From: Ceratodon purpureus
Lineage: Eukaryota; Streptophyta; Bryopsida; Pseudoditrichales; Ditrichaceae
DNA length: 64,000 nucleotides
Direction of reading: 5' to 3'
Assembly: GCA_014871385.1 (NCBI GenBank)
Contig: CM026426.1
Location: forward strand, 98,482,861 to 98,546,860
Within the stretch, counting starts at the first letter, position 1. Each line of letters starts with the position of its first letter. The notes below the pieces were generated by a model, which saw nothing but the letters and a program-made list of their open reading frames with translations, had not been told where the DNA came from and searched no databases. Shown in pieces: positions 1 to 29,049 of this stretch. The position numbers and the translations under genes were made by a program.

Positions 1-1073
1 TGCTGCAAATACCCCTTATGGACCCGGTCCATAATACAGATCAGTGCCCAAGCTAGCTTGGCCCTATGGGTGCGGAAGGCCTTAACACGGTCACGTGTTT
101 CCATGGGCATATCGGTTTGCTTGTGGATGTTACGGTTCTGAGTACCCTCACCGATATTTGAATTGAACCTGTTCAGAAAATTCTGCAGGCAATCCCCATT
201 CCACCAAAGCGTGTAGGCTTCCATCGTCCAGTCATTGACCGCAAAAAACTTAATAACGCCGGGATGGTCAATCCTGCAAACCATGGCTTCTATTGATGTC
301 TCGTACCGCTGCAGGGTCTCGTCAGGAGCCTTGGACATCTTCCCTGCAAAGACACAAGTCTCAGGTATGGTTTCCATGCCAACAATACGTAATTTTCGGA
401 CTTTACCATAACCGCCTTCCTTTGTGCCTGTCAGCGGAACCAACTTGACCCCTCTTCGAACTCCAACCAGTGCTCCCCACAAGTACTTCTCCATTGCGCT
501 TTTCAGCCCAGCTTCAAGCCATGGCCTCACCCTCGTCCGACTACTCGAGAATCTCGTGCACGAATCTTGGACATATTTGAGCTTCTCTATCTCCTCCTTC
601 TGTGCCCGCGAGTAGCCCTCCTTCTGCTTCTTGTTGACACACTCAAAGACATGCACAATGTTTGTAGTGTTTGTTGTTATTTGTTGCTCCATCCACTTAG
701 GGAAATGAAAGTAATGAATACAATCATTATATCTCTCGGAACTGTCCAGCTTCTTCTACAAATACTCTTCCAACTCAGTTTTCAAGTTCTTAATTCCGGT
801 CTCCCCCTTGTCAACGTATGTACGGGTAATCATCTCCCGTTTCCAACATTCGTACCACTCCAATGTTAGCACTCGAACGAAGTCCTGGTACCGCTGAGGT
901 GGGTAGTCCGGGTCCTTGTCATTTGCCCGTTTTCGGTTCTTCTTTCCCGATGAGCTTGATGATGGGTTTGAGCCTGTATGAGATGGTGTTGTGAAGGTTG
1001 CCACCACCTCATCTACAGGAGCATCAAGATCTAAGTAGGCGGGACGTCTCCTGGATCCACGAGAGACCGACAT
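1..1073 (-). pseudogene. Protein-kinase-like gene, 3' part beyond the window edge
   Basis: The first ATG at 1073 opens a basic, Ser-rich N-terminus (MSVSRGSRRRP) with a nuclear-signal-like KKNRKRA. Reading continues in one frame to base 1, apart from a single TAG at 756-758. The distal part looks like a protein kinase N-lobe: glycine loop GGYGKVRKLRI, a candidate ATP lysine in VFAGK, a Glu-bearing helix, an HPGVIKFF stretch where kinases have HPNIV, and an alpha-E-like LAWALICIMDRVHKGYL that would lead to the catalytic loop just outside the window. Without the HRD and DFG motifs, activity cannot be judged. It lies downstream of its own TATA and GC array and next to the hAT transposase, so it may be element cargo. 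Confidence 0.55.
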
Positions 1074-1247
1074 AGTTGGAATAATGAACTGGACACACAA
1101 TAGAAAAAAACAAAAGTTCCCCCCCACCCAATCTGGTTGCTCCCACTTCCTGCAGTTCCAAGCAGAGCACGTGGAGTCACGAGCTAGGACAAGGAGCCAC
1201 CTGGAAGAGGAGACTTTGAAAAGTAGAAAATAAGGGTTAAGGGGCGC

Positions 1248-1257
1248 CTTTTATGCT
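1248..1257 (-). promoter_or_regulatory. TATA-like box of the kinase-like gene
   Basis: The minus strand reads AGCATAAAAG about 175 bases before the ATG at 1073, directly downstream of a GC array. The same TATA-then-array layout recurs before the hAT gene and the RING-like gene. Confidence 0.4.
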
Positions 1258-1259
1258 CC

Positions 1260-1575
1260 CCTCGGATGATCGCGCCCGTAAGCGCGCGTACAGGGCCTCC
1301 ACACGCGCCCGTCCGCACGCGCCCGTCCACCGCGTGTGCGCGCCCGTGCCCATGTGCGCGTCCGTTAGTCCACATCGGGCGCGCCCGGCACCGCAGGCTC
1401 CCGTGTCCGCGTGCTCGCGCCCGTAACCTTGCGCGCGCCGGTTATCTGTACGCGCGAGCACGCTTCACGCGCCCGTGACCGTGCACGCGCCCGTCCCCGC
1501 GCACGCGCCCGACTCCGTGCACTCGCCCGCCTTCCTGTACGCGCCCATCCCTGTGCACGCGCCCGGATATGCAGC
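1260..1575. repeat. GC array 1 (GGGCGCG-type words)
   Basis: Many spaced copies of CGCGCCCGT and CGCGCCCG (GGGCGCG on the minus strand) are separated by 6-12 variable bases. The words run in the opposite orientation to those in arrays 2 to 5. Open frames across it are compositional shadows rich in Arg and Ala. It sits just upstream of the kinase-like gene's TATA box, so a promoter-upstream role is plausible. Confidence 0.65.
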
Positions 1576-1907
1576 GTTACATACACTGTACACGTTCGGT
1601 TACGGTATACTCGTATATTGAACAGAATACAAAAAAAGATCACTACGAAATTACTCAATGGAAATATATTAACCGCATTTAGCGCTGATAAAATAATACA
1701 GAGCACAACCATACAATTCCTTCGAGTGTGAGATAATGAACTAGGGTTGACTCTAAGTAACAGTATAAGTCCACGTAATAAGAAGGTGCTACCAAAAAAA
1801 AAAAAAAAAAACATTAAGAATAACATAGTATTTTTTTTGGGTTTTTAGCCGGTAGATTTTATGGTTAGATTTACTGCTACTTCATGCGCTAAAAAAGTGA
1901 CCACAGT

Positions 1908-4900
1908 CTAGACTATCCTTGCTTTGCGGGGCTTCTTCTTGCGTGAAGATTGTCTTTTCCGAGCCAAAGTGGACCCCAATTCGTGCCGGATTATCACATC
2001 TTCGTCATTAGGCGCCTCATCGCAATTCGGGTCTTCCTCGTCTTAGCGATCGTCGTCACCTTCATCCTCAGGATCACCGACCACTGGAGCTCGTACCTCT
2101 CCTTCCACCTCTGATGTAATATTGCGCACTTGCATGGAAACTTCATCGGTATCGCCATCTCTGGCACTTACTAGGCGCTTCATAGGCCTCTTCTTTCCGG
2201 AATTACCGATGGCTGTGATGCCATCTTCACTGATTACGCGTGTGCGAACAACCCCAGTTCCAGAAGATGCCCCCCCTTCAGTGTACCCTGTATAGAATGG
2301 CAGGGGATCAGGTCCGGTTCTTTTGCTTGACTTTCGTGTTCCTCCACGGGGTTCTTGTGATGGTGGTTTCCTAAGAATCTTGTCTGTCGACTTCTTCGCA
2401 CCACGTTGGGCCACATTTTGTAGGGCGTAGTCTATAGCTGGCGCCACGGCGACTTGGTTGGCGGTGAAGGCACCACGCCGACTACCACCAGCTCGATTGA
2501 GTGGAGGCCTCGCCGCTGCAGATGATCTAAGGAGTCGAGCTATTTTTGCGCCCATTGAACCCCTGGGCCTCCGAGCCAGGCCTCCATCCATGATTGTATC
2601 TGGTTCGTTAGCCCTCATATCAGTGGGTTGCCATGGAGGCACAGTCCGTGCGGGGATTGCGTGAACGGTCCTTCTCTCCTCAGCAGGAGGAATCTCTTGA
2701 AGCAAGCTTGAGTCTCCTTGAGCCGGAACGGTTCCCCAGTTGCCCTCCCCACTAACGAGGCCGGTCCAATGAGGTCCATCTGCAGCCCGTCCATGACTTC
2801 CATCACCCCCTTCGTCATTGTCCTCGTCATCATCGCCAGCATGGATATCGTTTCCAAGATGGTCCTTGCTGGACGAATCATCCGCAACCCCGTCATATTT
2901 CTTGGGATTGATATGGACTGGAATAGCATCTTCTTGGTCACATGTGTCTCTTCCTTCTGCATTAGCCGCTTCATCAAATACCGGGAGTGTGGGTAATTCG
3001 TCTCCATAGATGTTCATGTCCGGGTTTCCCTGGTTATATTCTGGTTCATTGTTGAAGTCGTACGCATCACCGTTATCATCGTGGTTGTTGAGGTCACGAG
3101 GATTCTTGCGGTTAGCGTCATCGCGCCCGTTGCCATTACCGTCGTTCTGCCCATTCGTGTTAACGTCGTCGTTATCATGTCCCCTGACATCATCATCCCC
3201 ACCGTCTGCGTGGTCAACTGGTATGTAATGATCGTCGTCATCTCCGTCCTCTTCGCTTGGATCTCTCTCCGGATCTGACTCCTCTGACCATGCATTGTTC
3301 TCGTACCATCTGAGGGGGTTGGGCTTTGGGCGTTCGCGGAGGAGTCTGCTATTCGTATAAATGTACACCAAGGCCTCAGACTTCTCCAACCCCAGGCGGT
3401 TGCGTACCTTGTTGTGGACAAACGAATACATGCTCCAATTCCGTTCACACGATGAGGCGGAGCAGACCTGAGATAAAATGCGCTTCGCAATGACTGCCAA
3501 TGGTCCCCCTCCAATCCTCTGCCACCATTGATGGGGTTCCAGATTCAAACCTCTGATATCGATGGTCACTTCGGGGCTGTAAGGGCCACGTCCCTCGTCG
3601 AACTTGATCATCTCTTTCATAAGATCGGCAAATGGAATTCTCATTTGCCCACCCACCTGACGAAACACCTGATTGAGAGCCGCCTTCGCTTCTCCTATGG
3701 CTTGTAAGCCCTTATGCGTTTTGGTCCAAGGGTTCAAGAGCGCCGCGGCATAATGAAGATCGGTGTGCATCATGTCCCATCTACGGTCGAATGGCATCTC
3801 CATCCTTGTTGCCGTGACTGGTGGGAAAAAGCAAGGGTGTCCTCAGAGACTGTACACGTGATCCTTTAGGTTGCTCATTGTAACCCATGCCTTGCCCATT
3901 TGGGGCTGGTTACCATCGAACATTCTGAGAGCAACCAGGGCTGGTTTCACCAGGTGCTTGAAGTTGTCACACTGATAAGAGAACCCATCATCACGAATTG
4001 TTTGACGCACTAGGCTTGCGCGTGCATGATTACGCTTCCCCTCGGTTTGGTTGAATAAACCGTCGACATAATCGACCACTCCGCTGCCATGACCACTTGC
4101 TCCAAAGCAAATTTAACCTCCATAAGGCGCCCTATCATCAGATAGTTACAAGCGAATCTGGTTTTAGCGGGAACCACCAAGGACAACTTGGGTTCAAATT
4201 TGCGGAAAAGGGCCATGGGAACATGATGTCTCCGAATGTAATGACACACGTGTTTAGCCTTGGCGACCAAATCCTTCACAAAGAGTTCCTTGCCCCAGTC
4301 CTCCATAAGAAGATCTAGAATATGGGCACAACAGCCCTACTTGTACATGTGAGGATACTCCACTAGGATATTATCCATGGCGCCAAGCATGTTGCTTGCA
4401 CTGTCCGTACAAATCTGGACAACATTCTGAGGGCCAATTTCTTGAATATATTTCTTCATCTCCCCCGCAATGTATCCCATTGACTTCTTCTCGCCAGTCG
4501 TATCAACAGACCCAAGAAATACATCGCCTGCCGGACATACTAGCATGACATTCATCAACGGTCGGCGATTCACATTATCCCAACCATCGGAGAAAATGGT
4601 AGCCCCGTATAACTCGGTCAAGGTTTTCGTACGTTCATCAATCTTTGCCTTGATTAACTTTTTTTTTTTCTTGATGTGCGTTGTTCGCATCGCGTCATAG
4701 GAAGGAGGACCGTAGTTAAATCCGGCAGCCGCGGTTGTGCTCACCGCCTTAATAAATGCTGGGTGCTTGGCCACGTTGAATGCGACGTTGGCTTCGTAAA
4801 AGAAGGATGACCACAACATGTCCAGCTCCTTTCGCTTGGCGATCTGGAGTGCTTCACTCATGTCCTGTTGCCGCAAGCTCCTAGTGGTATTCGAACCGGC

Positions 4901-5353
4901 CCTACTAGGTGCAGCACTAGAGACATTTCGGTCCTCTTCGGTATCATTATACGAGGGTTCGGATCCACCGTACAGAGTGCCGTGTGTAGAAGCACTGGAA
5001 CATGGACGTTGAACTGACGCGGGGTACATTGGCCTCATACCATCCATCTCCTCCTGTGTCAAAGGGCCGGGAATCTTCCCACCGCAAAACTGAAATTTCC
5101 TCTTCACTACGGTAGGTGCCTTTAAGCAAACCCTCGAGAGATTGGACTGGTCCCAACCATAATGCTGAAAGCACCTAGACTTCACGTACAAAAACCTGGT
5201 CCTGCAATACACATATTGGGCTACCTTATGTGACAGTGACCCTTCCTGGAGCTTGACCGTAAACCATGGTGCCCACTCTCTCGTACCTAGTCTCGGAATG
5301 GCTCTAGCCGGAGCAACCACTCCAACCGGTTCAACCGCTTCAACCGGTTCCAT
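1908..5353 (-). pseudogene. hAT-superfamily transposase with long acidic C-terminal extension
   Basis: It would cut and paste a hAT DNA transposon. The ATG at 5353 follows a clear TATA box. The N-terminal third has a Cys/His-bearing, BED-like stretch (FQHYGWDQ, CGGKIPG). Next come the first catalytic Asp in TIFSDGWDNV, a second in ICTDSASNML, the CCAHILDL motif, and the C-terminal dimerisation region with the catalytic-type Glu in SSCERNWS and the VRNRLGLEKSEALVYI helix. Beyond the usual hAT end lie more than 400 extra residues, mostly Asp/Asn/Gly-rich. A basic KRKQ/KKKPRKAR-like tail lies just past the stop at 2043, in the same frame, ending at 1908. There is a TAG at 4337, a frame change near 4080, another stop near 3843 and the TAA at 2043: largely complete but not translatable as it stands. 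Confidence 0.85.
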
Positions 5354-5596
5354 AGTGAATGATTAGGGAAGTCTCCGGACTAATAGGACCGGTAGAACCA
5401 AAAGATTATTATTTGATATAACTTAGTGTGTCTGAAAAGTGCTTGACACATTGATTTATGGAGAGAAGAATTTTTACATTCCCCCCACCCAAACCAAGTG
5501 TCTCCCCAAGCTAACAGTTTCAAGCAAGGAGCCCTCAAGGAGACCCAGGACATGAAACACGCAAGGAGGTAAGGTGAATGTCAAATCAAGGGGGCA

Positions 5597-5605
5597 GTTT
5601 ATATA
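5597..5605 (-). promoter_or_regulatory. TATA box of the hAT transposase gene
   Basis: The minus strand reads GTATATAAAC about 245 bases before the ATG at 5353. It lies at the exact edge of GC array 2. Confidence 0.6.
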
Positions 5606-5965
5606 CTGCCGCCCTCGACCGGGCGAGTACTGTCCGGACGGGCGCGACCGAACGGGCGCGCGCGCACCAGGGGATCGGGCGCGCTCCGCTGCGAACAAGC
5701 GGGCGCAAGTGGGTGCGCGCGATTGCAGGCGCGCGTGGCGGAGCTCGCGCGCGCGCGCGCACGGGGCGTAGTTGGGGACGGGCGCGAATAGGCGCGCGCG
5801 ATCGCTTGCGCGCGGACGGTTGGGCGCGAGCAGGGCGCGCGCAGTTGGGCGCGCACGCGTACTTGAGGGCGCGGGCGCGCGTGTGGGCAGGTTCAATGGA
5901 ACGACCGCGGACGCGATCGCGCGGGCGCCTGCAGGCGCGGACGGACGGGCGCGATCAAACAGGCG
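5606..5965. repeat. GC array 2
   Basis: This is a dense run of GGGCGCG, GCGCGCG and GGGCGCGAGCA words on the plus strand with short variable spacers. It lies directly upstream of the hAT promoter. Long alternating CG tracts could adopt Z-DNA, which is an inference. The open frames across it encode only Arg/Ala-rich shadows. Confidence 0.65.
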
Positions 5966-6104
5966 CGTAGTGAAGTTTAAAAGTCGGAAGTTCCAAAAAA
6001 ATAAAAATAAGAAAAGTTCAGGGAGAGAATGGATTACACAGAAATGTAATACATTAGTATGGGAGATTGGAGTAACCAAAGGAAAAAAAAAATAAAAAAA
6101 AATT

Positions 6105-6462
6105 AAAGAGCGTAGGAGTATTGAATAAAAATAGGGCGGGAGGATGGGGGAGAGGCGGAATTATAAAAATGAACGGACGAAATGAGAGAATGAATTAAAT
6201 GAAAGCGAAGTGTTTAAAGAAGGGGAAAAAAAAATAAAAAACATTTTAAAGAGCGTAGGAGTATTGAATAAAAATAAGGCGGGAGGATGGGAGAGTGGTG
6301 GAATTATAAAAATGAATGGACGAAATGAGAGAATGAATTAAATGAAAGCGAAGTGTTCAAAGAAGGGGAAAAAAAAATAAAAAACATATTAAAGAGGGTA
6401 GGAGTATTGGATAAAAATAAGGCGGGATGATGGGGGAGAGGTGGAATTATAAAACTTATTTG
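6105..6462. repeat. A-rich tandem repeat, 143-bp period, about 2.5 copies
   Basis: The unit starts with AAAGAGCGTAGGAGTATTG, includes AATGAGAGAATGAATTAAATG and ends in an A-run. Starts at 6105, 6248 and 6391 give a 143-base period. The copies differ by a few substitutions. The unit separates GC arrays 2 and 3. Confidence 0.8.
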
Positions 6463-6464
6463 AG

Positions 6465-7045
6465 GTGCTCGGGCGCGTGCAAAACGGGCGCGAGCACTGA
6501 TGGGCGCGAGCGCGTGCGGGCGCGTGCAAATGGAAAGAAGGAGTTCGGGGGGAGAATTTAGTTCCATGATACGGTTGCAGTGCTCGCGCGCGAGTATTGA
6601 CGGGCGAGAGCAGTGGGGCGCGTGCAAGATCGGGCGCGAGCGGAACGCGGGTGACATTGTGGGGGGAGAATGAGTTCCTGAATTTGGTATTCGTGCGCGC
6701 GCGGTTGGTTTGACGGGCGCAATCAGGATGCGCGCGTGCAAATGGAAAAGGGAGTTTGGGGAGAAAAAATAGTTCCATGATAAGGTTGCAGTGCTCGCGC
6801 GCGTGCAATGTCGGGCGCGAGCAGTCGGGCGCGTGCAAAATTGGGCGCGAGCGGAACGACGGAGACACCGTGGGGTGTTCCACATTTCGGTATCCGTTCG
6901 TGCGCTGTTGGTGCGACGGGCGCGAGCAGTTCGCGCGCGCGCGTACGGGCGCAATCCTGAGTTTACTCTCGCTGGGGGAAGGTTTGCGCGCGCGCAGGTA
7001 CGCACACTACGGGCGCGCGCAAACGCGCGCGTGCATGCGGGCGGG
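6465..7045. repeat. GC array 3 with a 212-bp higher-order duplication
   Basis: GGGCGCGAGC and GGGCGCGTGCAA words recur through the block. A larger unit beginning GTGCAAATGGAAA starts at 6524 and again at 6736, so a segment of about 212 bp was duplicated in tandem. Unlike arrays 1, 2 and 4 it has no open gene immediately downstream on the minus strand, so it may be a promoter whose gene has been lost. Confidence 0.6.
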
Positions 7046-7461
7046 TTCAGAGTTCAAATCCACGTAACATAAAATTCAATCTATAAGTTAAATACACTTA
7101 CAATAACTTCAGTTTTCTTACCGTGACTTAAATCCACTGAACATATTAAACATTTTGGTGTTCAACAGAGATATTTATACACTTATCATACGATGGTAGG
7201 AGGAGAGACAACGGGCGGAATGAATAACATGATTGGCAATCAAAAAAAGGGAGGCCAATGTATTATGTAGGGAGAATAAAAGCGTCTTGGGAACCACGCA
7301 AAGATTTCGGAAAGAAAATTATCATCCATTGTATGAGTTTAACAAACATTAAACATGTGAATGTAATCCTAAACCTATCCAATTCCCTATGCCTTCTACA
7401 TGTATTTATATTCCGATATCTTTTTACATAACGTGGTCTTCACTCATGGATCTCCACGACG
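7046..7461. other. AT-rich spacer, no gene seen
   Basis: This is non-coding sequence between GC array 3 and the 3' end of the RING-like gene. It probably includes that gene's 3' untranslated region. No repeat or RNA signal was recognised. Confidence 0.5.
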
Positions 7462-9962
7462 TCACGTGCCCGGTGCAGAGGAACTCGATCCACCCTCATC
7501 GTGTCGTGCACGAGAGCTACCGGCTGCACTACTTTCTGCTCCATCGTTAGCGATGAGTTTCCGCTTCGCAAAACGGGTTCTCTTTGCTATGCCATCTCCT
7601 CCAAGCATTGCTTCCATGAAGTTGTTGTTGCGCATCCAACGGAGCACTGTTACGGAGTATGTTGCGCATATAGAAATCCACAGCTTGAGATTTGAACAAT
7701 ACATCCCATTCAGATTCCGCGGTTTGTAACTCATTAACGATCTCGAGATCCTGTTCAGTTATGTCGTGCAACTCCTTGCGCTGATCCGCAACCAACTTCC
7801 CTTTGGAATTCCACTTAAATCCAAGAGGATGGGGGCCGTACTGGAATGTACGAGTTTGAATATCCCAGTGCCCATGTAGCACTTGGTAGAAGAAATTCCT
7901 CCTTCCCTCGAGTTCGTCCTCCGTCCCGCCGTTGATGGGTTCGTGGCAGATCCTTACAATCTCCGCAGGATCCTGGTCCCACCTCCACTGATCGCTCATT
8001 TTTTTAACATAAGACTGGTGCATTCCCGTAAGCCAATTCCAAATCAAGTCCTCACCCCACTTGTCCGGAAAGTCAGGAGTATTTTCCTTATTTTGCTCCC
8101 AATGCGGTGGCATCCAGGTCGCTAAGCCGAACTGCTCATAAAAACGCTTGTGTAAGGGGGCCTTACATATTGCACACCAACGACGTATCAAGGCATGGGA
8201 AATCAAGCATTGTGGATGATACATGCAGTGACAAGATCCCAATGACCAGCCCCCTCTGGCCCAAATGGATTGTAACAAACGGGACACTTGGTCCCATCCA
8301 ACACATACTTCTGTGGATTGGGCCAGAGCAATCTTGGCTGGGCAGTACTATTCTCAGGGATCTTTTCATTAGATCTGGCAATCTTGTACTCCCACTCCAA
8401 CTGCGTCCAATCTATTTCCTTACCAATCATCGGTATGTCGTCAAGGAACATTTCATCTGGATCTGCCCACTTGGTAAGTCCGAAATATCTCTTGGAGTTA
8501 AGCTGGAGGTAGTCGCGGTCAATCCTCTTGAACTCACTGTACATCTGTCTATGACGGTCAACGTTCATGATGCATGCAATCTTCCATTGGTAGTACTGTC
8601 TGCTCATCTGGATCAGATACTTTCTGAGCATCCCGTTGGTAGCTTGCAATTCGGAGACAGTGGGTACCGATGGCTGTTGAAATCCCAAAGAGTCCTCCGT
8701 CTCTTGAGAATCCACAAACATGATTTGCCGCTAGGGGGGTGCATCACTTGACTTGATGACGCGAATGGGATGATTGGCTTACGGGGAACTCACACCGGGG
8801 TATCTTCCAGGAGACCGTGCGTGGCCGATTCAATGATGGCATTCACGTTGTCCTCGTTCATTCCAGGGCTACCAGGGATTGGAGCTTGGCTTGCCTCGGG
8901 TACGTAAGTCAGAGTCTTCGCAGATCTAAGTTGCGAAATCTCTTCATTCTGCTTCCGTATAATCTCATTCATCCTATCAGCTTCTTCGTAGAAGTTCTGG
9001 ATAGTCTTCTCCATCTCAGAAATTATTGCATTTTTTCCTTCAAGCTCCTTCTGCAATGCATCGCCTTGCGGGCCCTGGGCATCAGCGGCGGCTATTGTAG
9101 CCTCCAACTCATCTGCAAACCCAGTGTCATCATCTTCCATTACATCGCTCGGGCCCGCAATCTGTGGATTCAGTACATGAGGAGCAACATCAACATTGCT
9201 CGGGCCCCCGACGATTGCTAGAGGAGCCTGATGAGGAATACCCGGTCTAGTAGGATATGCAGGCGGTGCACGATTCCTCGTCGACAAACACGCAGCTATC
9301 TCAGGATCCTTCTTTTTTAACCGTGTGATTCTAGCACTAGTCGCTGCTCTTGTTTGTGACTGAGGGGGACGGTCTATTGTACCATCAGAATCATTATCCG
9401 CTTCTGAGTCACTCCAATCAACAGGCGCATGATCCTCAGGATCATCCAAGTATTCCCTGTCATGATCTGGAAATTTTAGGACCCCTGTAGGTATCACCAT
9501 CTCTCGTGGACGCTGCTGGACGCTAGGAGTCAACCGTATGGTCCTCCAATCCACCTGCCTTTGAAGCATTACCTTGGCATATACCATTCTACAAATAAAG
9601 AGCGGAACCTCGTTTCTATCGTTCATCGCTCGGTTGTATAGAACCTGCCACACCTCCAAACACCGCCTCCCGAACTGACGGTTCTTGCAAAATCTCATGT
9701 TCGCCTTGTTTGAAGTACGATTTTTATTATGGCGGTGCAACGGGAATAACTTCCCAATGTGGCACCATTCAATGAATTGTTCACACGTTGCTAGACTCCA
9801 CGGTTGCGGTGCAGCTTCCCACCCTCTGAATGCTAGCTTTGCAGGATTCATTAAGACGTGAACTCTCTTATTTTGGAGGGTTCCATGCCTGACCCGTCCT
9901 GCATCCTTCAGCATTTTCCTCTGCTCTGCCGCCGTGGGCTGATCAGGTCCTCGCCGTTCCAT
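7462..9962 (-). pseudogene. Coiled-coil / RING-like zinc-finger protein gene
   Basis: The ATG at 9962 (MERRGPDQ) opens a protein of about 830 residues. The first part is basic and Trp-rich, then acidic, with a clear coiled coil just before 8796 (EMEKTIQNFYEEADRMNEII). A likely 65-base intron (8731-8795, GTGTGAG to CCCTAG) joins it in phase to MFVDSQETEDS. The second part carries a RING-like metal cluster near 8200-8270: CPVC, then CHCMYHPQC, SH and CAIC. The C-terminus has a basic KRTRFAKRK and a Ser-rich end. RING-like proteins often act as ubiquitin ligases, but no substrate can be inferred. Two frame changes, one in a G-run inside the RING-like part near 8245 and one near 7600, make it a pseudogene or reflect sequence errors. 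Confidence 0.55.
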
Positions 9963-10234
9963 AGCTGCTCGAGGTAGACCGTTCTTCGAAGTCTTCCAAA
10001 AGTGCAAAATTAAAAGCCTACGACTACCCCAAAACCTCAATCACATTAACAAATTATAAACATTTACAAAATTCTCAAATGTACCAGAAAAACACCATAG
10101 AGTTCTGGAGAACTAAAGCAAAGACACGTGTCAGAGTGCTGGGACCCACCTGAGTACCATGCAATCAGCTACCCGGGGCTATTGAAGGCAAGGTGCTCAA
10201 AGGGGGGGAGTGCAAAATGAGGGGGCAAATCGCC

Positions 10235-10243
10235 CTTTTATAG
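10235..10243 (-). promoter_or_regulatory. TATA box of the RING-like gene
   Basis: The minus strand reads CTATAAAAG at the edge of GC array 4, about 275 bases before the ATG at 9962. A close relative of the segment 10165-10250 recurs at 29745-29840. Confidence 0.6.
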
Positions 10244-10244
10244 T

Positions 10245-10582
10245 CACGGGCGCCAGTGAACGGGTGCGAACATCCTGCTACGGGCGCGAGCAGAAACCCC
10301 ACGGGCGCGCGCGGGCACCGATGGCGGGGTTTCGGCCGTGTATACCTCCGCGGCCGCGCGGGTTTCAACGGGCGCGAGCAGTTCCGTGGCGGGTATATGA
10401 CGCACGCGAGCGGGTAGCGACCCGGTCGTCGTGGGGCGCGCGCGGGCGTCGTCCGGGTACCTAAGCGGCGCGCGCGCGGACGTCGATGCGGGCGTGCGGA
10501 TATTATTCGGGCGCGATCCGAATTGCACGGGCACGAACGCTGGATGGACGGGCGCGAGCACTGGTCCAAGACGGGCGCCACC
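10245..10582. repeat. GC array 4
   Basis: GGGCGCGAGCAG, GGGCGCGCGC and GGGCGCGAAC words run along the plus strand, directly upstream of the CTATAAAAG box. The array closes with GGGCGCCACC, as does array 5 at 30155-30165. Confidence 0.65.
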
Positions 10583-10703
10583 ACAAACTAGAACATTGTT
10601 AAAAATCAGAGTAATCAAAGAGAACTATCAAATTCAGAGTTAAAAAAAAATACTCTATTTATTTTGAAAATTTATCACTTCATTGTAATGTCAATTACAG
10701 TGC

Positions 10704-11098
10704 CATGCACTCTAGGTACCGGTCCTCTAGGTCTTTCAAGTGCGTCTCGAAATGGTTTGTTTGAGCACTAGAGACAATATTGGGGACACAAAGTATTGCC
10801 ATCTCCTTCTTCAGTTCTTTGATGAGATCGCCAATCTCACAGTCAAGTTTTTGACAGTCGCTTGGGTTGCCAACTGCTCTTCAGTGGTTGGAGGCAGAGG
10901 GCGTCCATTCTCTGCGTAGGCCACCAATTTGTCATGGCGAGAGATCCAATCCTCGAAGAACTTAATCAGTTGACGGAGTCGCTCCAGCATTGACCAAATA
11001 ACTGTGTCCGTTCGCTGTGCAGTGCCCGGTTGGGTGGCACCATTCGTTACACTCATGTACGACTTGATTTGTTGGCAATTGCACGCGTTGGAATTCAT
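10704..11098 (-). pseudogene. Short coiled-coil protein, unrecognised
   Basis: The ATG at 11098 opens MNSNACNCQQIKSYM and runs through amphipathic, Leu/Arg-rich helices (WSMLERLRQLIKFFEDWISRH). Near 10850 the open frame changes by one base. The second frame continues with KLDCEIGDLIKELKKEM and ends in LKDLEDRYLECMAL at a stop at 10704, so the intact protein would be about 130 residues. It resembles small helical accessory proteins, but no family is recognised. It lies closest to the presumed right end of the large element, so its promoter would have to lie in the terminal repeat. Confidence 0.4.
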
Positions 11099-11149
11099 GT
11101 TGGACGGTACAAAAATTGTTGAGAAACCCACCGTAACACTAAGCAATGG

Positions 11150-11275
11150 GGAAAGTTCGTATGTGAGCGGAGAGCGTAGAGCGGAGAGCGGAGAGCACAG
11201 AATGGAGAGCACAGAGTTGACAATTAGCAAAAAAATTAAAAGCAAAGTAGACCCTATAACCGTGGATAATTACTA
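11150..11275 (-). repeat. Presumed right terminal segment of the large element
   Basis: On the minus strand this reads TAATTATCCACGGTTATAGGG, then several GCTCTCCGCT words, then GCTCAC. The same order occurs on the plus strand at 29555-29740. Because that copy is inverted and also sits at the outer edge of a GC-array unit, this is best read as a terminal inverted repeat. Confidence 0.5.
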
Positions 11276-11279
11276 AATT

Positions 11280-11800
11280 AAGGCTTGATTTTGACACTTT
11301 TTTTAGGAAAAGAGTATATTACCGTGGAGATCAGGGTTTTTTTTGGTAGGAATTTATGAAGTTTGTTCTCTAATATACAAATTAGGGCTGATATCATGAT
11401 GACGTCATGCATATGTTTTGTTAGATTTGTCATGGGTTTAGGCAAGATACAATGATCAGGCGTTAGGTTTCAGATCAAACAAATAATTCTTTCATAGGAT
11501 TATATAGATGCACAAGGAAACCAACCCATCCAACCTTTACACCACCCCAACCAATCATCTATGCACGACCATACACATTGCACTCAGATTTCTTAAAACT
11601 CATTCAAATTATCTCCACTTCTCATTCCATAATCGTTCAATCCTTCACATACTGTCTATACATTGCACAGGCCGTGCTCCGCCCCTTTACAGCAAGCTAT
11701 CCCTCCCCTTACAAAAATTCACCGTTTTCCCATAAACAGTCTCTCCACCCCAACCGCCATCACCCCCCACCGACACAGTTTCTCTCCACTCGCGCTGCCC
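11280..11800. other. AT-rich to C-rich spacer, no gene seen
   Basis: This lies between the presumed element end and the next coding block. It has several T-runs and a CATGATGACGTCATGC palindromic core near 11395-11410 (ATGACGTCAT, a CRE-like word). No coding potential beyond short shadows was seen. Confidence 0.4.
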
Positions 11801-11803
11801 TCC

Positions 11804-12770
11804 TCAATCACGCTGTGAAGACGACTCCATCATATACTCCAGCTCCTCCGACGTATACTCTCGGCTGCAATTCGCCACACTACTCACCACCTGCGTCCCG
11901 CCCTCCACCTTAGCATTCTGACCCCCTTGCACCTCGTCCTCACTGATCTTTGGAGCTACCTCTACGGAGCCTCCCTCGGTCTCGTCCACCTCTTCAGAGC
12001 TGCTCTTAGTCGACATTTCCTCGCGCTCCTCGTACACCCCACCTCCTAATGCGGCCAACTGTCGAAGAATGTCCGCCACGCTGGGTGGCATCGGATCCAA
12101 TAACTCCATTGCCTGCGCTCGCCACGCCTCCCGCTCTTTTGCCCCGCCCACTGTCCGCGCTGCCGCATTCCCTCCTGGCCCTGTCCACACTGCCACATCC
12201 CTTCCCGCCACTCCTCCCACACCCTCCCTCACCCCATTGGCACCAGCGATATCGCCCCCTTCACCCGCCACCCCAAACTGTTCCGCCACATACTCCTCAA
12301 ACGTATACCCCGACGCTACCCCCAATGCCTAAACCTCCTGCCGACACTGATCCGACCAAATGAACACCTTTGAGTCCGCCACCGCGCGGCTCAAGCGAGG
12401 CAGATCCGGCAACTTAGCTCTTTCCTCCCACTCCTTCTGAAGCCCCCGTCGCAGATACACCTGCCCCACCCACGATAGCACCATCCCCTTCTCAAAATCC
12501 ATCGCTGTAGTTCTTCACAATCCACACCACCCCGGCTGCCCTCACCCTCCCCACTTCCAAAAAAGCCTTCCCCACCCTCCTCTGCCCCACTCGCCATATG
12601 CCTCGCCCCACCCTACACTCTCCCCCACCGCCCCCTTCTTCACTCCCCTCAACACCCAACATGTCTCTTCCCCCATCACTCCCCCTCTCCGCAACTAATG
12701 CTCCGACCCCCACAAGTCCCATCTCTGCACTGCTGTCAATTACACCACTCCAAAACAGACCCACTCCCAC
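11804..12770 (-). pseudogene. Unrecognised G-rich coding block
   Basis: The minus strand has coding-like sequence in neighbouring frames: a segment ending VVWIVKNYSDGF, then GMVLSWVGQVYLRRGLQKEW, then after one stop ALGVASGYTFEEYVAEQFG, and finally an acidic Glu/Ser-rich tail ending at 11804. The strong strand bias (C-rich plus strand) resembles that of the LINE at 53-57 kb. That suggests a mobile-element ORF from the same compositional class, but I recognise no domain. At least one stop and one frame change are present. Confidence 0.35.
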
Positions 12771-12786
12771 CCACTGCTACTCCGCA

Positions 12787-12788
<2 letters not shown>

Positions 12789-12839
<51 letters not shown>

Positions 12840-12847
12840 ATATATGT

Positions 12848-12886
<39 letters not shown>

Positions 12887-12890
12887 CTTC
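12789..12890. repeat. TA microsatellite
   Basis: Two long ATAT tracts (about 12789-12836 and 12853-12882) are joined by CAAATATATGTACACACA. They continue into TACATA-type degenerate sequence. Confidence 0.95.
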
Positions 12891-13103
12891 TACATATCTA
12901 TAAATACATATATATCTATACATACATCTCCCCATTTTTTACCCTACCCAGTCCAACTCATTCTATATCCACCCCGCATCTCTATGTTTCTCTAGTTTTG
13001 GTTACTATAATAGCCATCCTTGAAAGAGGAGAGTAGTTGAGTCACACTGTCCCTCTGTCCTGTGGGCACCGGGTCATTGGCTCTACAAACGGCCACTTCA
13101 TTC

Positions 13104-13128
13104 ACGCTGGCCCTCAAAGGGCCAGTGT
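13104..13128. other. Perfect short hairpin
   Basis: CTGGCCC (13107-13113) pairs with GGGCCAG (13119-13125) around a TCAAA loop, and flanking pairs extend the stem. It lies in non-coding sequence. Its role is unknown; it could be an RNA 3'-end structure. Confidence 0.5.
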
Positions 13129-13183
13129 TTCTATCTATGCACAAGCAAAAAACAAATTACACAGAACATAAAGGAGGCAAGGT

Positions 13184-14132
13184 TTGAAAACTTCCTTGAA
13201 TATTTCAAAATTCGTGTATAATATCTTAACTGCTGAAACCAAGATATACCTTGTTTCAGTCCTTGTCTTCATCGAAGATTACTCTCTCTTCCTAGGCAGT
13301 AAAGCATCTTCATTTGAGTGATACAAGGAGATTTTCATCATGAAACAGCACTTGGTAAGCTGGGTTCCAGAGAAGGAGGTCACCCTTGGTTTCTTGAGCT
13401 TGTTTCTAGGTGGCGTATTAGGATAGTGACACAGTCCTTGGCATTCTATGCTGTATGCGAAGGTTGCATAGGAGTTCGGGGGGGTCAATCTACAAGCTTG
13501 CGTGGAACGTTTTAAGACTACGACAATTTAGTGTGTTGCGCGATGCCGAAGGTGTGTAATGCGAGATCGAGGAGGACGAGAGCGGCTGTAGGTTTGCCCC
13601 TAAAGGCACCGGCGAGTTATCAAGAGCTGCGGCCCTGGCTGTTGGAGGTGGAGCGCGCCAGAGAACGAGGCATGGACCTGCCACCGTTTAGGCACATCGG
13701 AAGCCTCCATGTTGGTGAAGGTGAATGGCATTGGACAGTGCTTTGTACCAATGAGCTTCTCCGTATTATGGAGTTGTCCCTAATCCCGTATCCCTTGCTA
13801 TCGAACGTCGATGAGAATCCAGTTGTTCAGCTGCCCGAAGTGATCATATCGGATGGCGAAACTTGCTGGTTTGATATGGACAAGAGTTGGACTGTATATC
13901 CTCCGAAGGATTAGTACTGTGAAGTCTAGTTGGGTGTTCGAATACAATCCTTTAGATTTGGTCCCTTATTGGATCTAGATACGAGTATTCCAGCATGATG
14001 GCTTTAGATAATATAGACGATTCTAGGAATAAGACAACTCGAAACCAACTAAAAGAAATGGTCTTAAAAGTTCGTGGAATATTTCAGAGTTCGTGTACAA
14101 TAACGGAGTAGCAGAAACCAAGATGTACACCA
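13184..14132. repeat. Diverged direct repeat pair (13184-13252 and 14064-14132)
   Basis: Both arms share GAATATTTC, TTCGTGTA, CTG/CAG and GAAACCAAGAT in the same order and spacing, at roughly 80 percent identity by eye. They flank the unknown ORF at 13540-13914. The right arm lies just beyond the 3' end of the methyltransferase-like gene, so the left arm may be the 3' untranslated region of a deleted sister copy. Confidence 0.45.
13540..13914 (+). CDS. Unknown 124-residue protein
   Basis: An ATG at 13540 (MPKVCNARSRRTR) opens a complete ORF ending at 13914. The product starts basic, has an amphipathic helix (ELRPWLLEVERARERG) and continues with a globular-looking part containing GEWHWTVLCTNELLRI and an acidic, aromatic end. 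No signal peptide, membrane segment or known domain was recognised. Balanced amino-acid use suggests a real coding origin, possibly one exon of a longer gene. Confidence 0.4.
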   Translation, partial: AMPKVCNARSRRTRAAVGLPLKAPASYQELRPWLLEVERARERGMDLPPFRHIGSLHVGEGEWHWTVLCTNELLRIMELSLIPYPLLSNVDENPVVQLPEVIISDGETCWFDMDKSWTVYPPKD

Positions 14133-14423
14133 AGTCAAGAATAGGTAAAATGGCTATGGAAATGTGGGAATTTGAATGATTAAAATATAAGTTACAGCGC
14201 AGTTTAAAATTTGAGCATTTCTTTTGTAACATTTCATTCTTCATAAGTCATGTCTTAGAAGACTTGCAATTTTAGAACTTTACATACACGAGTAAAACTG
14301 GAAATGAGAATCATGAATATTTTAGTGGTTTGCAATAGAGTAGACAATGTAGTATGTAATCAACTGCACTGAAATCAAATCAAATCAAATGGATACAATG
14401 ATAGAGCGAGGCCTCTTTCAAAC
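13915..14423. other. Spacer, probable 3' untranslated region of the minus-strand gene
   Basis: AT-rich sequence between two genes pointing toward each other. It includes a CAAAT run at 14375-14391 and the right arm of the direct repeat. No RNA gene was seen. Confidence 0.4.
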
Positions 14424-17400
14424 TTAGAAGATGCTACAGTCGCTACTTCCACTCTCAGAACCCGATGACTCAGACTCTCCTTCTGCAGCCTCTTCATCGA
14501 CAAATAGAAGGGCCCTGGGATCAAAATTAGTGGGCCGACTAGGAACATATCTAAGTGCACCACATTGAAGCGCTTGTGCTAAGCCCTCTGCATAGTCCGG
14601 AAGTATAAAAGGCTGAACCGGGCTGGAATTAAGACGCCACGATGGAGTGAACACGGCTCTATGCCCACTTGGCGGTGTTGTCACAACTACTCTGCAATAG
14701 AAAGCCAGAAGTGGTTAGATCGAATAGGTAAATTTGCGTACAGAAATAATAATAGATGAATTGCACGAAACATACAAATTCTAGAGTAAGACTTACAATA
14801 CTTAGTGGGTCTTTGTTTCTTTGCTGGTGCTTCCTCTGCTGCTGCCGGTCTAGGATGTTTAGGGGGGCCCATGGGAGATTTTGCTGCCATATACGGTTTG
14901 AGAAGGGCGTTGAATATGGCTTCGTCATCCTCAAAAGCTATAATATGACGACCAATAGCCTGGCAAGCCTTGACAGAGGCCCCTGCAACTCAAAGCAAGG
15001 TGAAGACGTGAGAAACTGAGGAAGGAATCAGAGAAATAATTCTTTAGAGACATGTAAGAACGGTTACCTGTTCCTGCCTTCCAGTCCAAGACTATGTCGC
15101 CGGGCTTCGAGAGCTCTCCAATTATGCTCTCCATCATCTCAGGGGCTTTCTCCCTTGGCCCTCTCCATGGAACATCCCCATTCATTTGCTGAGAATCAAC
15201 GTCGATAAAGTTGAAAATCGCATCACTCTCGGTAATGTTGAGGTCGCCATGTATGACATCGGATTTCTTCGTTTGAAAGGAGAACTTGGATGGCGGCTCG
15301 CCACCACGAACGAAGACGCGGATCCAGAACCAATTAGTCTGCAATCAACCAAATTATGTCAGAATGAATAAACGGAAGGGATAGTACTAAGTAAAGTGAA
15401 GGAAAGGAAAGGATGAAATTACCAGGTTTCCGGGGTTCGTAGGAGAAGTCAGGCCGAGCACATTGAAGCCCCACCAGTCTTTGTAAAGGACGAACTTAGT
15501 GGCGCTAGCTTCTTCGAGAATCTCCGTTGCCAACGCTTGATCATTGTTGTAGATGATGCACAGAGCGCCATCATTTTGCAAGTAAAGAGTTGCGAAATAG
15601 AAAATGTCGTACACATAATCCTTTTCACGGGAGTTCCAAGGAGGAATCACTGTAGGGGGATCGGAAACGAGAGGGACAGGAAGATTCTCAGGGATGTCAA
15701 CGATGATCAAGTCGACTCCCATAGGGTTAGACTATATGAAATTAATTGAAGTGTATGTAATATTGTATTATATAAGAAGAGAATCATACCTTGCGCACGA
15801 ACTCTAGAGTTTTCATCCAATCCGGATGGCCACCCTTGTCTTTGAGCTCCATGTTACGAACCAGTAACGGGGTCACGGATGAGTTGATGATAGAAACACC
15901 AGTGGAATGGGGAGTTCCAGCGGAGGAGGTGCTTGCCGAGAGAATTCTGGCCTTCCTTTGCTCCAGAAGACCTCTGGTGATAGCGGATGCACTGACCGAT
16001 GAAGGCGCAGGAGTAGGGGACAGATTGGGAACGACAATAACAGGAGTTGGAACGGCAGCGCCCTTCTCCGGTGCGGAGGACTCTGCACGAGTCTCCTGAG
16101 AGCCCTGGGACTTAGCACCCAACTTTCGCAGTCGCCGCGCCCGCCCTTTCTTCGGTGGAGGTGCAGATGACTGATCCTGAAGGCCTTCGGCCTCATCAGA
16201 ACCGTCTCCAGAATCATCGACTGCTATTGATTCCACGTCAAGCTCAGCTTTGAGCTCCGCTTCAGACTCAATAACGAATCCTCGAATGCAATCGAGGTAC
16301 CAACACCGAGCGGCTAGGTGGGGCGAGCTGTACCTCTTCAGCTGCAGAGGAGTATAAATACACTGATCAGAGCCTCTCTGAATCCACGAGGCGAAGTATG
16401 AAGGGAACTTCTCAGGGTCAATTGCACCTTTTGGAAGCAGCTCTCTCTTGAAGTACCTAATAAAACTCAATTGCCATGTATCACAAACATATTATTGACA
16501 ATGAATAAATGCGAAAAGGAAAAAAGATACGAAGTCGAAGTTCATATATGTCCTACCGGTATGTTACACGCTTGACAACATCTGCTGCTCCCGGAAAAGT
16601 GGAAAAATCAGACTTCTTATCAAAAGGCTTTTCTGCGCGGGTACTTATAAATGCGGGGAAAGCCTTTTCCCAAAGGAGAATACGCCAACTCTCCACATAT
16701 GCGTCTGGCCGCAACAGTCCCGGTAAGGACTTCCACTTGATGACAAGGTTCTCGGTCTTACAGATGTCATCAAACTCCCAGGTAACAGCATCCTCCAAGT
16801 GCCACAGAAAGGTAATGTCGTTGAGGTAAGCATGGACATTAAACAAAGAAGAAGAGGTTTCAGTGATTGTTACGAAGTTTGAAGAGTTCTACCGCAGCCC
16901 AGAATGTGGCCTTGTTCAACCAAGGGTCCAACTCGGCCTCCTTAAATTCTTGGGGCAGAAATCTGTAAGATTGTCGTGCACTTGGTGAAGAGTTCCACCA
17001 CTTCAGCCAACGGGCTTTAAATCTGGCATCAACATTTGCGGGAACAATCCTCTGAAGCTTATCCACTGTCATCTCGGGCTTGGAAAAATCACTGTAATGC
17101 CGATTGATCTGGGAAGAGAACAATACATGATAGGAAAGATTAGATTTGGAAATAGTTTTAGAAAAGTAAAGTAGAAATTTCAAGGGTTGAAACTCACCTC
17201 CGCAAGGAAGTCATCACTGTTTTTGGGATTGGCAATGGTCAGGTACTTGGTGAAGTCCTTCTTCTTAATGTAGTTGATCATGTCGGACAAAGCAGCAGAC
17301 ATAGCATCCCAGACCCCTGCGGCAGTTTGCTCTGTAATGGGTGTCTTCTCCTTCTAGGTCCTGGCTGCTTCGTCTGAAGCAGCCACGATTTCTCTCTGGA

Positions 17401-18141
17401 AAAAAAACATTATCAACTTCTGAGTGTACTGAGCACGGCAATTGATGACATTTAAAATCGTGAGGGGGGGTGGAGAAGAAGTGCTTACACGATAAAGAAA
17501 TGCGATGAAGATTTTGGTTGGCAAAGTAAACCATCCAGGAATCGATGGTTTGTGATTCAAACATAATTGATACTCCGCTGGTGAGAGCAGATCCTTGAAT
17601 TCCTCCAATTTCATCACACCAAAAGAGCGAATACGAAAGAGTTTTGCAGGAAGATTACTCTTCACATGATCATTTTTTGTAGACCTGCTCGAAGATATGG
17701 TAGTTAGTAAAAGCCTTGAAGTGGAAGTACAAGCAGCTTTCAAGAAGTGGGGACAAGAAGTAGTGTGGAAAGTAATTTCCACGGTTGACACACCGGAATA
17801 CTAATTCCGGTAGGAAAATGATAAAAATTTAAAAATTTTGTGTTAGGAATACGGAAGTACTACTTAGATAAGTGAAACAACCGGTTAAGACGGTTAGCCG
17901 AATAAATAAGAGAACCGGAAGGTCAACCGGGTGAGATCAGGTCGACTGCGGGGGAGGAGTGGGAGCACCGTCCGTATGACAGAACCCTGACCCCGCAGAC
18001 TTAAGAATGACCACCGAAAGGTACAACGCACGCGGGGAGAATGGCTGCAACCATTAAAACGCCGCCGGTCGCGACCGTCCAATGATGAAAGGCTACGACC
18101 GTCCGTCATGATGAGCTACGAACGGGTGGACGTGAGTGCAG

Positions 18142-18149
18142 GTATAAAA
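18142..18149 (+). promoter_or_regulatory. TATA box inside the LTR
   Basis: TATAAAAG lies about 205 bases before the LTR ORF start and recurs at 34740-34747 in the sister LTR. Transcription from here would place the ORF first on the element RNA. Confidence 0.6.
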
Positions 18150-18351
18150 GGAGGAAGAACAGCGGTGCTCCTCCTTTCTTTTTGTCATTTTGTGGCACGC
18201 CGGGTCCTTGTGTCTCACGACGAAGGGCGCAGTTAGGGTTGGACGGTAGGAGAGAGACGGTGAGACGGAAGTGTTTCCGTTAGGTGAGAGATTGTGGTGA
18301 GGATCGTGCGTGCAGGTGTTACCGGAGTGACGGTGAGGAGGACTTAGCAGA

Positions 18352-20217: not shown

Positions 20218-20409
20218 GAGTTAGGATAGGGACCGGATAAAATGGCAGCGACTAACGATGGGACTCCAGTGCACCCGGCTGCCAATCCGGATAGATAGCG
20301 GCAGTAACTAGGAATAGAAGGCGGCCACCGGTCCGGGATTCCCGGATCCAAGATCCGGAATTTCTGGATCTCGATGGGCCACTTGGTCGCTTTAGGAATC
20401 GATAGGTTT

Positions 20410-20452
20410 TAGTATTTAAGCTGAACGTTTTTCCAAGGCCGGGGCCTTGTTT
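20410..20452 (+). promoter_or_regulatory. Second TATA-like word and hairpin within the LTR
   Basis: TATTTAAG is followed by CAAGGCCGGGGCCTTG, a GC hairpin, and a TTGTTTTGTA-rich stretch. The segment is nearly identical in the sister LTR near 37015-37058. It could mark RNA start or 3'-end formation (the R region); this is an inference from position. Confidence 0.35.
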
Positions 20453-22223: not shown

Positions 22224-22286
22224 TCTTGGAGAGGTAGGCATGTAGCCCGGGGATGTAGGCTCATAGACAGGAGACGTAGGCATGTA
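22224..22286 (-). other. Three RNA polymerase II CTD-like heptads
   Basis: Exactly 63 bases encode YMPTSPV, YEPTSPG and YMPTSPR, matching the CTD consensus YSPTSPS at Y1, P3, T4, S5 and P6 in every copy. They lie in an exon of the methyltransferase-like gene and run on into a Pro/Ser-rich tract (LGTPPMSPPSPSSPI). Confidence 0.75.
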
Positions 22287-22771
22287 CTGAGGAGAGTGGA
22301 CCTCAAGAGGTCCACTACCTAAACCTACAGGGTTGCCCAAATCACATCTACATAAATGGGGCTGATCAAATGAATCCGAGAGGTTGGAGACATTGATCAC
22401 TGAGATCGGCGAACTGATGGACAAGGGTGCATCTCAGAATACCTAGAGAAAAAGAACAAAAACATTGTCATATTCCCAACTAAGCATTCAGAAGAAAATT
22501 AGAAATGACTATGGAAGTTCAATAAATCAGGCTATGTTCAAATCCGAAAACAAATGAAAACAAATTACCTCAGTTTCTGCTGGAGTTGGGCCATCAAAGT
22601 CACTTGCGGTGAATTGCTCAGTGAGCTCCTACAACACAAAAGGTATTCACCAAATGAGATTTATATACAAAGCATAAAAGAAATAGAATAAAACAAAGAG
22701 TTGCAGATTATACAAATCATTTTCCCAATATTAAGATTAAGTTTTATTTTCCCAATCATCACACCTCCCCC

Positions 22772-24630: not shown

Positions 24631-24640
24631 CTTATATATC
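24631..24640 (-). promoter_or_regulatory. TATA box of the methyltransferase-like gene
   Basis: The minus strand reads GATATATAAG about 60-70 bases before the ATG at 24570, supporting this as the real gene start. It is preferred to the GTG ten codons upstream. Confidence 0.6.
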
Positions 24641-24644
24641 CCAA

Positions 24645-28075: not shown

Positions 28076-28329
28076 GTAGCCCTCCTTCTTTAGAACTGCC
28101 ATTTCCACAATGGCCATTTGTCACGTAGTGAATGATTTTAGTAATACACCATGTACTAAGTCAGCTATTCAGAAGCTGTATTGACTTTTTCATTATATTA
28201 AAGGTTTTGTCGTTCTCATTGATTGCACTCTATTTCAATACATTCTATCTTGAACAAGTGCACTATATACTTCGTATCCCCTGACATGTATCTTTTATTA
28301 CAGCAAACATATACTTGTTATTAGATGTC

Positions 28330-28782: not shown

Positions 28783-28860
28783 AGCTGCTGTCCCGCACTA
28801 CGGAAAAGAGCTTCACATAACACCAACACAAAAGAGGCAGAGACATTCCCTACTCTTATC

Positions 28861-28867
28861 TTAAATA
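28861..28867 (-). promoter_or_regulatory. TATA-like word of the convergent ORF
   Basis: The minus strand reads TATTTAA about 80 bases before the ATG at 28782. Confidence 0.35.
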
Positions 28868-28869
28868 TC

Positions 28870-29010: not shown

Positions 29011-29049
<39 letters not shown>

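What the first reader, a model, noticed from the sequence alone, without database searches (positions are those of the whole stretch)
1..11275. Candidate cargo-carrying hAT-type mega-element with kinase-like and RING-like genes
Seen: a hAT transposase lies in one transcriptional orientation with a protein-kinase-like gene, a coiled-coil/RING-like gene and a short coiled-coil gene, three of them behind the same TATA-plus-GC-array layout, with a right-end sequence that recurs elsewhere. Known: hAT elements normally carry only a transposase. Inferred: these genes travel together, perhaps as signalling or ubiquitin-related cargo. This is the best candidate for an undescribed system in the window.
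Basis: partly seen in the sequence, partly recalled or inferred. Interest (0 to 1): 0.8.

Follow-up and report, generated by a model that had tools for sequence, protein, structure and literature searches.

The report
Four-gene hAT transposon with kinase
A jumping gene of the hAT family carries three extra genes, among them a protein kinase and a RING-finger-like protein, and many near-identical copies of the set lie in this plant-like genome, which makes it an unusually elaborate member of a family normally thought to carry only a transposase.

Summary
It begins 1,060 bp left of the window and ends at 30309. Four copies read end to end have matching terminal repeats; three have perfect 8-bp target duplications, the window's matches at 7 of 8. 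One 15.2-kb copy has all four genes open. Capped searches listed 82 full-length kinase, 52 RING, 46 hAT and 150 short-gene places. 61 of 83 kinase places have a listed short gene 10.3-14.3 kb upstream, same strand; random placement gives 0.4. Kinase and RING gene show purifying selection like the transposase. What the cargo does is unknown; my best guess, about one in three, is countering silencing via CpG-rich promoter arrays. Ceratodon purpureus is the inferred source.

The parts
1..1073 (-). Protein-kinase gene, 5' part; the gene runs off the window's left edge to about -492; the element's left terminal repeat begins at -1060 (G000:C6:98481800)
   Evidence: Pfam Pkinase on the full protein of the C8 copy; in-frame stop at about 756-758
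1074..1907 (-). Kinase promoter: TATA box about 1247-1255 and GC/CpG array about 1261-1570
   Evidence: TATA box read by eye
1908..5353 (-). hAT transposase gene, decayed in this copy; intact relative 1148 aa
5354..6080 (-). hAT promoter: TATA box about 5598-5605 and GC/CpG array
   Evidence: TATA box read by eye
6084..6454 (.). 143-bp minisatellite, 2.6 copies here
   Evidence: more tandem matches in the C8 and C6:39.09-Mb copies
6455..7100 (.). Further GC/CpG array (GGGCGCG 11 times)
7462..9962 (-). Coiled-coil plus RING-finger gene, one gene, decayed here; open relatives 850-867 aa
9963..10620 (-). RING-gene promoter: TATA box about 10235-10242 and GC/CpG array
   Evidence: 5' leader alignable with that of the short gene in the C8 copy
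10695..11098 (-). Short gene (134 aa in relatives), function unknown, frame broken here
11137..11147 (.). Left copy of the 11-bp target duplication CACTAAGCAAT made by nested element X; the other copy is 29741-29751
   Evidence: single copy at the uninterrupted site of C8 and C6:39.09
11148..29740 (.). Nested element X (18.6 kb, own terminal inverted repeats), not part of the hAT element
29741..30281 (-). Short gene's own promoter (TATA box about 29827-29833, GC/CpG array), cut off from its gene by X
   Evidence: TATA box read by eye
30282..30309 (-). Right terminal inverted repeat of the hAT element
30310..30317 (.). Right 8-bp target duplication CTTCACGG (left copy, outside the window, CTTCAGGG; 7 of 8 match)

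Best explanation
It is one hAT DNA transposon of about 13-16 kb with four co-oriented genes: short protein, RING/coiled-coil protein, hAT transposase, protein kinase. SHOWN by sequence: it has moved as one unit, with short terminal inverted repeats (CATGGTTGTCATAATGGACC on the left) and 8-bp target duplications; kinase and RING gene stayed under purifying selection like the transposase. INFERRED from near-identity of many copies: it multiplied recently and is or was autonomous. The window copy is an old decayed member, split by a second transposon. INFERRED: the transposase cuts and pastes the element in the ordinary hAT way. INFERRED, about 1 in 3: kinase and RING protein work in trans for the element, as regulators that keep it expressed and unsilenced, with the CpG-dense GGGCGCG arrays in front of every gene as the sequence tag through which an element protein finds its own copies. 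In that it would work like, without being, the VANDAL/VANC anti-silencing system. Regulating the transposase itself by phosphorylation and ubiquitylation is about as likely.
For: Unit of movement: terminal repeats and target duplications in four full copies; the 10 best-scoring kinase loci (of 84 rows; loci for the rest not fetched) share the left terminal repeat at ten different flanks. Co-location; controls 0-4, random placement mean 0.4 (maximum 2 in 200 trials) against 61 observed. Recent multiplication: 20 of 82 full-length kinase rows score the same as the query's own match, the query's place included; no stops in 71 of 82 kinase, 139 of 150 short, 34 of 46 hAT and 45 of 52 RING rows. 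Selection: dN/dS kinase 0.45 (bootstrap 0.33-0.59), RING 0.51 (0.39-0.66), hAT pieces 0.44 and 0.56; shifted frames of these genes 0.70-1.32. Key residues in the C2 copy: kinase FAGK, HND...N, DWG, APE; hAT D, D, CxxH, E; eight possible RING ligands (what the motifs mean is recalled). Arrays.
Against: Nothing here tests what kinase, RING or short protein do. Selection on the short gene is not significant (dN/dS 0.55, bootstrap 0.24-1.50). The dN/dS sets are 3-5 related, partly dead copies; one single pair reaches 1.07. zf-RING_2 is below Pfam's cut-off. High CpG in the arrays may be selection for the motif and not absence of methylation. VANC homology was not tested beyond Pfam. AlphaFold models of kinase and RING protein failed (mean pLDDT 30.6 each). 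9 of 83 kinases have no listed partner and 2 of 46 hAT genes neither listed kinase nor short gene.
Confidence: 0.85

Rival explanations
1. The extra genes are host gene fragments caught by chance (Pack-TIR style) and carried along without function.
For: TIR elements do capture host sequence (recalled). Cargo function is untested here.
Against: Each gene is full length with its own promoter of the same design; open frames in most scored rows; purifying selection on kinase and RING gene; same order, strand and spacing at many places.
Confidence: 0.05
2. Kinase and RING protein regulate the transposase or its complex directly (phosphorylation, ubiquitylation, timing of excision), and the GC arrays are subterminal transposase sites plus promoters.
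For: Arrays lie in both subterminal regions as well as at internal promoters. hAT transposases use subterminal repeats (recalled for Ac; the Kat1 abstract in the listing says terminal and subterminal repeats matter for its endonuclease activity).
Against: Arrays stand in front of every gene, not only near the ends, which fits gene expression better; their orientation at the kinase promoter is opposite to the others.
Confidence: 0.33
3. Segmental duplication of a host gene cluster with a hAT gene by accident inside it.
For: Multiple copies share the whole block.
Against: Similarity stops at matching inverted repeats flanked by 8-bp duplications at unrelated sites.
Confidence: 0.01
4. Kinase and RING protein are host-manipulating or selfish-drive cargo (spread or survival of the carrier) and not helpers of transposition.
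For: High copy number; kinase-like modules occur in fungal Spok drive genes carried by large transposons (recalled).
Against: No toxin-like domain among the Pfam matches; in a many-copy element a drive gene gains little from each added copy (inference).
Confidence: 0.08

Closest known systems
hAT superfamily (Ac, Tam3, Tol2 and others)
   Same: Transposase domains, catalytic residues, short terminal inverted repeats, 8-bp target duplications
   Different: Four genes and 13-16 kb instead of one transposase gene and usually a few kb (typical size recalled)
hAT7 and IS3EU transposons of rust fungi (Kojima 2025, PMC12730594; outline, abstract and passages seen)
   Same: DNA transposons with accessory genes: hAT7 with a TET/JBP dioxygenase; IS3EU with TET/JBP plus an alpha-kinase gene
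   Different: Different accessory enzymes, 'ring' has no whole-word hit in the main text, 7-bp (hAT7) or 6-bp (IS3EU) target duplications, fungi. These show that 'hAT elements carry only a transposase' has exceptions
VANDAL21 with VANC anti-silencing protein, Arabidopsis (PMC5735166; passages seen)
   Same: Multi-gene element whose non-coding regions hold tandem repeats of a short motif, which vary between copies
   Different: VANDALs are MULEs (recalled) and VANC is not a kinase or RING protein (recalled); no VANC homology shown here
Kaonashi-type MULEs with ULP proteases (recalled, nothing read)
   Same: Plant TIR element with a ubiquitin-like-pathway gene
   Different: Protease instead of RING, MULE instead of hAT

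Membership tests
hAT superfamily | hAT transposase domains (DUF659, C-terminal dimerisation) | tested here: met
hAT superfamily | Catalytic D, D, CxxH and E motifs | tested here: met
   SDGWD 255, TDNA 316, CCAH 341, CERNWS 636 in the C2 copy; which motifs count is recalled
hAT superfamily | Short terminal inverted repeats | tested here: met
hAT superfamily | 8-bp target-site duplication | tested here: met
   3 of 4 full copies perfect, window copy 7 of 8
hAT superfamily | N-terminal BED zinc finger | tested here: inconclusive
   CxxC at residue 47 but no Pfam BED match at E up to 1
Active protein kinases | Pkinase domain with Lys, HxD...N, DxG, APE | tested here: met
   Pkinase 1.3e-7, exactly at the cut-off; residues; activity not testable here
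FunK1-like fungal kinases | Match to a fungal kinase profile | tested here: not met
   no such family among the four listed for the full kinase at E up to 10 (HMMER's filters drop most weak matches)
RING E3 ligases | RING domain with full set of metal ligands | tested here: inconclusive
   zf-RING_2 2e-4, below cut-off; pattern C-x2-C-x15-C-x-C-x2-H-x2-C-x10-C-x2-C found, with Cys at the fourth place where His is usual (usual pattern recalled)
Pack-TIR gene capture | Captured host fragments, mostly not full genes under selection | tested here: not met
VANDAL/VANC anti-silencing elements | VANC protein and demonstrated hypomethylation of its targets | not testable with these tools
   only the array layout was compared

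The most novel reading that the evidence does not exclude
A hAT transposon has evolved its own signalling and ubiquitin machinery to escape host silencing: kinase and RING protein act together on silencing factors recruited to, or kept off, the CpG-dense arrays that tag every promoter of the element, and this is why one plant-like genome holds scores of nearly identical copies.
Probability: 0.25. Interest if true: 0.85.

Novelty: new variant of a known kind. Interest (0 to 1): 0.66.

Why it matters
hAT elements are usually described as carrying one gene. A multi-gene, apparently recently active hAT with a conserved kinase and RING gene is a natural case for asking whether DNA transposons recruit signalling and protein-degradation enzymes to control their own expression or to beat silencing. 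The many open, nearly identical copies, the decayed older ones and the repeated promoter tag make that question directly testable.

Tried and rejected
My early thought of Chara as source was dropped: 362 Mb with one 110.5-Mb contig fits Ceratodon purpureus, 360 Mb with U and V above 100 Mb (PMC8000587, passages and section 22); this is inference, not a tool statement.

Led nowhere: PDB sequence search gave only weak kinase hits (E 1 for the piece, 0.0094 for the full kinase). Scans of viral contigs gave no relative of kinase or RING protein (each scan used six short peptides). AlphaFold models unusable, so no fold search was run. Paper searches gave no published kinase/RING hAT or such an element in moss: Chara; 0 papers; 15 of 397 listed; 10 of 110 listed; 2; 0; 1. 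The library lacks most subscription papers, and the Ceratodon genome paper that I tried is not held. A search for all terminal repeats, to find short derivatives or hAT-only copies, did not complete. The DNA search with the block scored only 4 of 1,894 first-look candidates, so it missed most of the family. A minisatellite word count (3, 4 and 5 in window, C8, C6:39.09) did not reflect the array lengths and is not used. Not tested: relatives in other species (none held for this genome).
Full report
WHAT IS THERE. The window is G000:C6:98482861-98546860 of a 362-Mb genome in 151 contigs. Of the ten block pieces scanned, two of those from the hAT gene (1908-5353) match Pfam hAT families (DUF659 1.6e-27; dimerisation region 1.9e-5) and none of the kinase, RING or short-gene pieces has a significant match: the window copy is broken by stops and frame shifts. 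The same genes in another copy (contig C8) are open: a 522-aa protein with a Pkinase match (1.3e-7) and an 850-aa protein with weak coiled-coil-family matches and a zf-RING_2 match (2e-4, below the curated cut-off). The hAT gene of that C8 copy itself has a frame break.

WHERE IT ENDS. The first DNA search returned four other places for the left half of the block (92-95% identity). Fetching 40 kb around each and comparing all with all showed shared sequence from 1,060 bp left of the window to 11147, and then, in the C8 and C6:39.09-Mb copies, directly on to what the window has at 29741-30309. At the outer limits lie inverted repeats, CATGGTTGTCATAATGGACC on the left and CA(T/G)GG(T/C)TGTCATAATGGACGG on the right, flanked by 8-bp duplications: TTCTCAGT (C8, perfect), CAGTTAAG (C6:39.09, perfect, if the first base of its left repeat has changed), CTTCAGGG/CTTCACGG (window, 7 of 8). 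A fourth full copy on C2 has CATCTGGA on both sides.

THE FALSE RIGHT END. The uninterrupted C8 and C6:39.09 copies have that word once at the same place. So X jumped in just upstream of the short gene and cut it off from its promoter. The C6:39.09 copy is likewise split by an 8.35-kb insert with TGTTA...TAACA ends and a 5-bp duplication GCATT, as LTR retrotransposons make. The C4 and C13 copies break off inside the hAT gene at other sequence; a short gene on the matching strand lies at C4:914259 (25 kb 5' of that hAT) and at C13:16225963, so these too may be whole copies pulled apart (inference).

ANATOMY. Gene order 5'-3': short (134 aa), RING/coiled-coil (850-867 aa), hAT (1148 aa), kinase (522 aa); all four are open without stops in the 15,213-bp C2 copy. 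Each is preceded by a TATA box (by eye) and an array rich in GGGCGCG. In the C8 copy the word (both strands) occurs 9-13 times in each of the four promoter segments, the left subterminal segment and segment 27450-29865, 3 times in the minisatellite segment, and 0 times in all four genes; resampled expectation was 1.0 or less per segment. It occurs once in X (11301-29500) and once in window 38001-64000. CpG observed/expected is 1.3-1.9 in these non-coding segments, 0.74-0.87 in the genes, 0.77 in X and 0.64 in window 38001-64000. RING and short gene have alignable 5' leaders (score 89 against a maximum of 30 in 200 shuffles); kinase and hAT share only a short stretch (25 against 24), and the other four pairs do not exceed shuffles.

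FAMILY SIZE AND CO-TRAVEL. Protein searches of the own genome score only the best candidates, so all counts are of capped lists and include the query's own place. They gave 84 kinase rows (82 full length at 97-100% identity, 71 of these 82 without stops, 20 scoring the same as the query's own match; 83 of 1,372 candidates scored), 150 short-gene rows (93-100%, 139 without stops; 150 of 323 scored), 46 hAT rows (93-100%, 34 without stops; 46 of 1,512) and 52 RING rows (95-100%, 45 without stops; 52 of 1,735). Of 83 kinase places (the 82 and one of two rows of a split match), 61 have a short gene 10.3-14.3 kb 5' on the same strand and 69 within 40 kb; controls with the wrong side or strand give 1-4, random placement a mean of 0.4, maximum 2 in 200 trials. 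Of 46 hAT places, 28 have a listed kinase 812-928 bp 3', 41 a listed short gene 5' within 40 kb, 25 both, 2 neither; controls 0 and 1. Of 52 RING places, 49 have the short gene 750-773 bp 5', 39 a listed kinase 7.6-10.7 kb 3', 36 both, 13 all four listed; controls 0, 3, 1. Nine of 83 kinases have no listed partner; 81 of 150 short genes are not paired with a listed kinase (69 paired). Missing partners may be real losses or rows that were not scored. The ten best kinase loci, the only ones cut out, all have the same left repeat at ten different flanks.

SELECTION. Pooled pairwise dN/dS: kinase 0.45 (bootstrap 0.33-0.59, 5 copies), RING 0.51 (0.39-0.66, 3), hAT pieces 0.44 (0.29-0.69) and 0.56 (0.44-0.74) (5 copies each, two of them partial for the first piece), short 0.55 (0.24-1.50, 3, not significant); the same alignments read in shifted frames give 0.70-1.32. 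Single pairs range from 0.27 to 1.07. The copies are related and some are dead, so these values are rough, but kinase and RING gene behave like the transposase gene.

HOW IT WORKS. Shown by sequence: a hAT element that has moved as a four-gene unit. Inferred: ordinary cut-and-paste by the hAT transposase. Inferred with about one chance in three: kinase and RING protein help the element escape silencing, the promoter arrays being the address tag. The model is VANDAL21, where VANC binds a short motif, its targets often form tandem repeats, and methylation is lost (PMC5735166, passages). About as likely: direct regulation of the transposase complex. Nothing here decides between them.

COMPARISON. 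Accessory genes in DNA transposons are known: Kojima (PMC12730594; outline, abstract, passages) describes hAT7 with a TET/JBP dioxygenase and IS3EU with TET/JBP and alpha-kinase genes in fungi. So a hAT with cargo is not without precedent, but the set kinase, RING, hAT and short protein did not turn up in the listings that I saw (for some only 15 of 397 and 10 of 110), in a library that lacks most subscription papers. I file it as a hAT (transposase, ends and 8-bp duplication tested and met) and as a new variant.

ORGANISM. Not stated by any tool. Genome size and the 110.5-Mb contig fit Ceratodon purpureus, whose U and V sex chromosomes exceed 100 Mb in a 360-Mb genome (PMC8000587, section 22); then C6 would be a sex chromosome. 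Of the 150 short-gene rows, those at 100% identity to the query lie on C6 in 5 of 31 cases, at 99% in 7 of 35, at 97-98% in 25 of 36, at 96% or less in 40 of 48, so more diverged copies sit mostly on C6.

Noticed in passing
window 11148-29740: Element X, 18.6 kb, terminal inverted repeats and an 11-bp target duplication, carries a piece similar to N4/N6 DNA methylases (14934-15344, N6_N4_Mtase E 9e-4, below cut-off); an X-like copy lies in C13 beside the broken hAT copy. Possibly a MULE-type cargo element; nine other X pieces scanned gave no Pfam match and its transposase was not identified.
   Followed up: partly
G000 contig C6 against the other contigs: Short-gene copies closest to the query lie mostly off C6 and more diverged ones mostly on it (5 of 31 at 100% against 40 of 48 at 96% or less), as if a non-recombining sex chromosome kept old insertions.
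   Followed up: partly
window 17764-21277 and 34360-37883: Two 3.5-kb direct repeats, 84% identical, one inside X and one outside the hAT element, with a long open frame without Pfam match in the first.
   Followed up: no
window 30310-34112: The hAT element sits in what looks like the pol region of a Gypsy-like retrotransposon (judged by eye from the open frames).
   Followed up: no
window 53184-57206: Open frames that by eye resemble a LINE endonuclease and reverse transcriptase.
   Followed up: no
window 63301-63363: Short array of TAAACCC, the plant-type telomere unit (recalled), far from a contig end.
   Followed up: no
L024-L025 (about G000:C6:39095664-39104018): 8.35-kb insert with TGTTA...TAACA ends and GCATT duplications inside the hAT gene of that copy.
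   Followed up: partly
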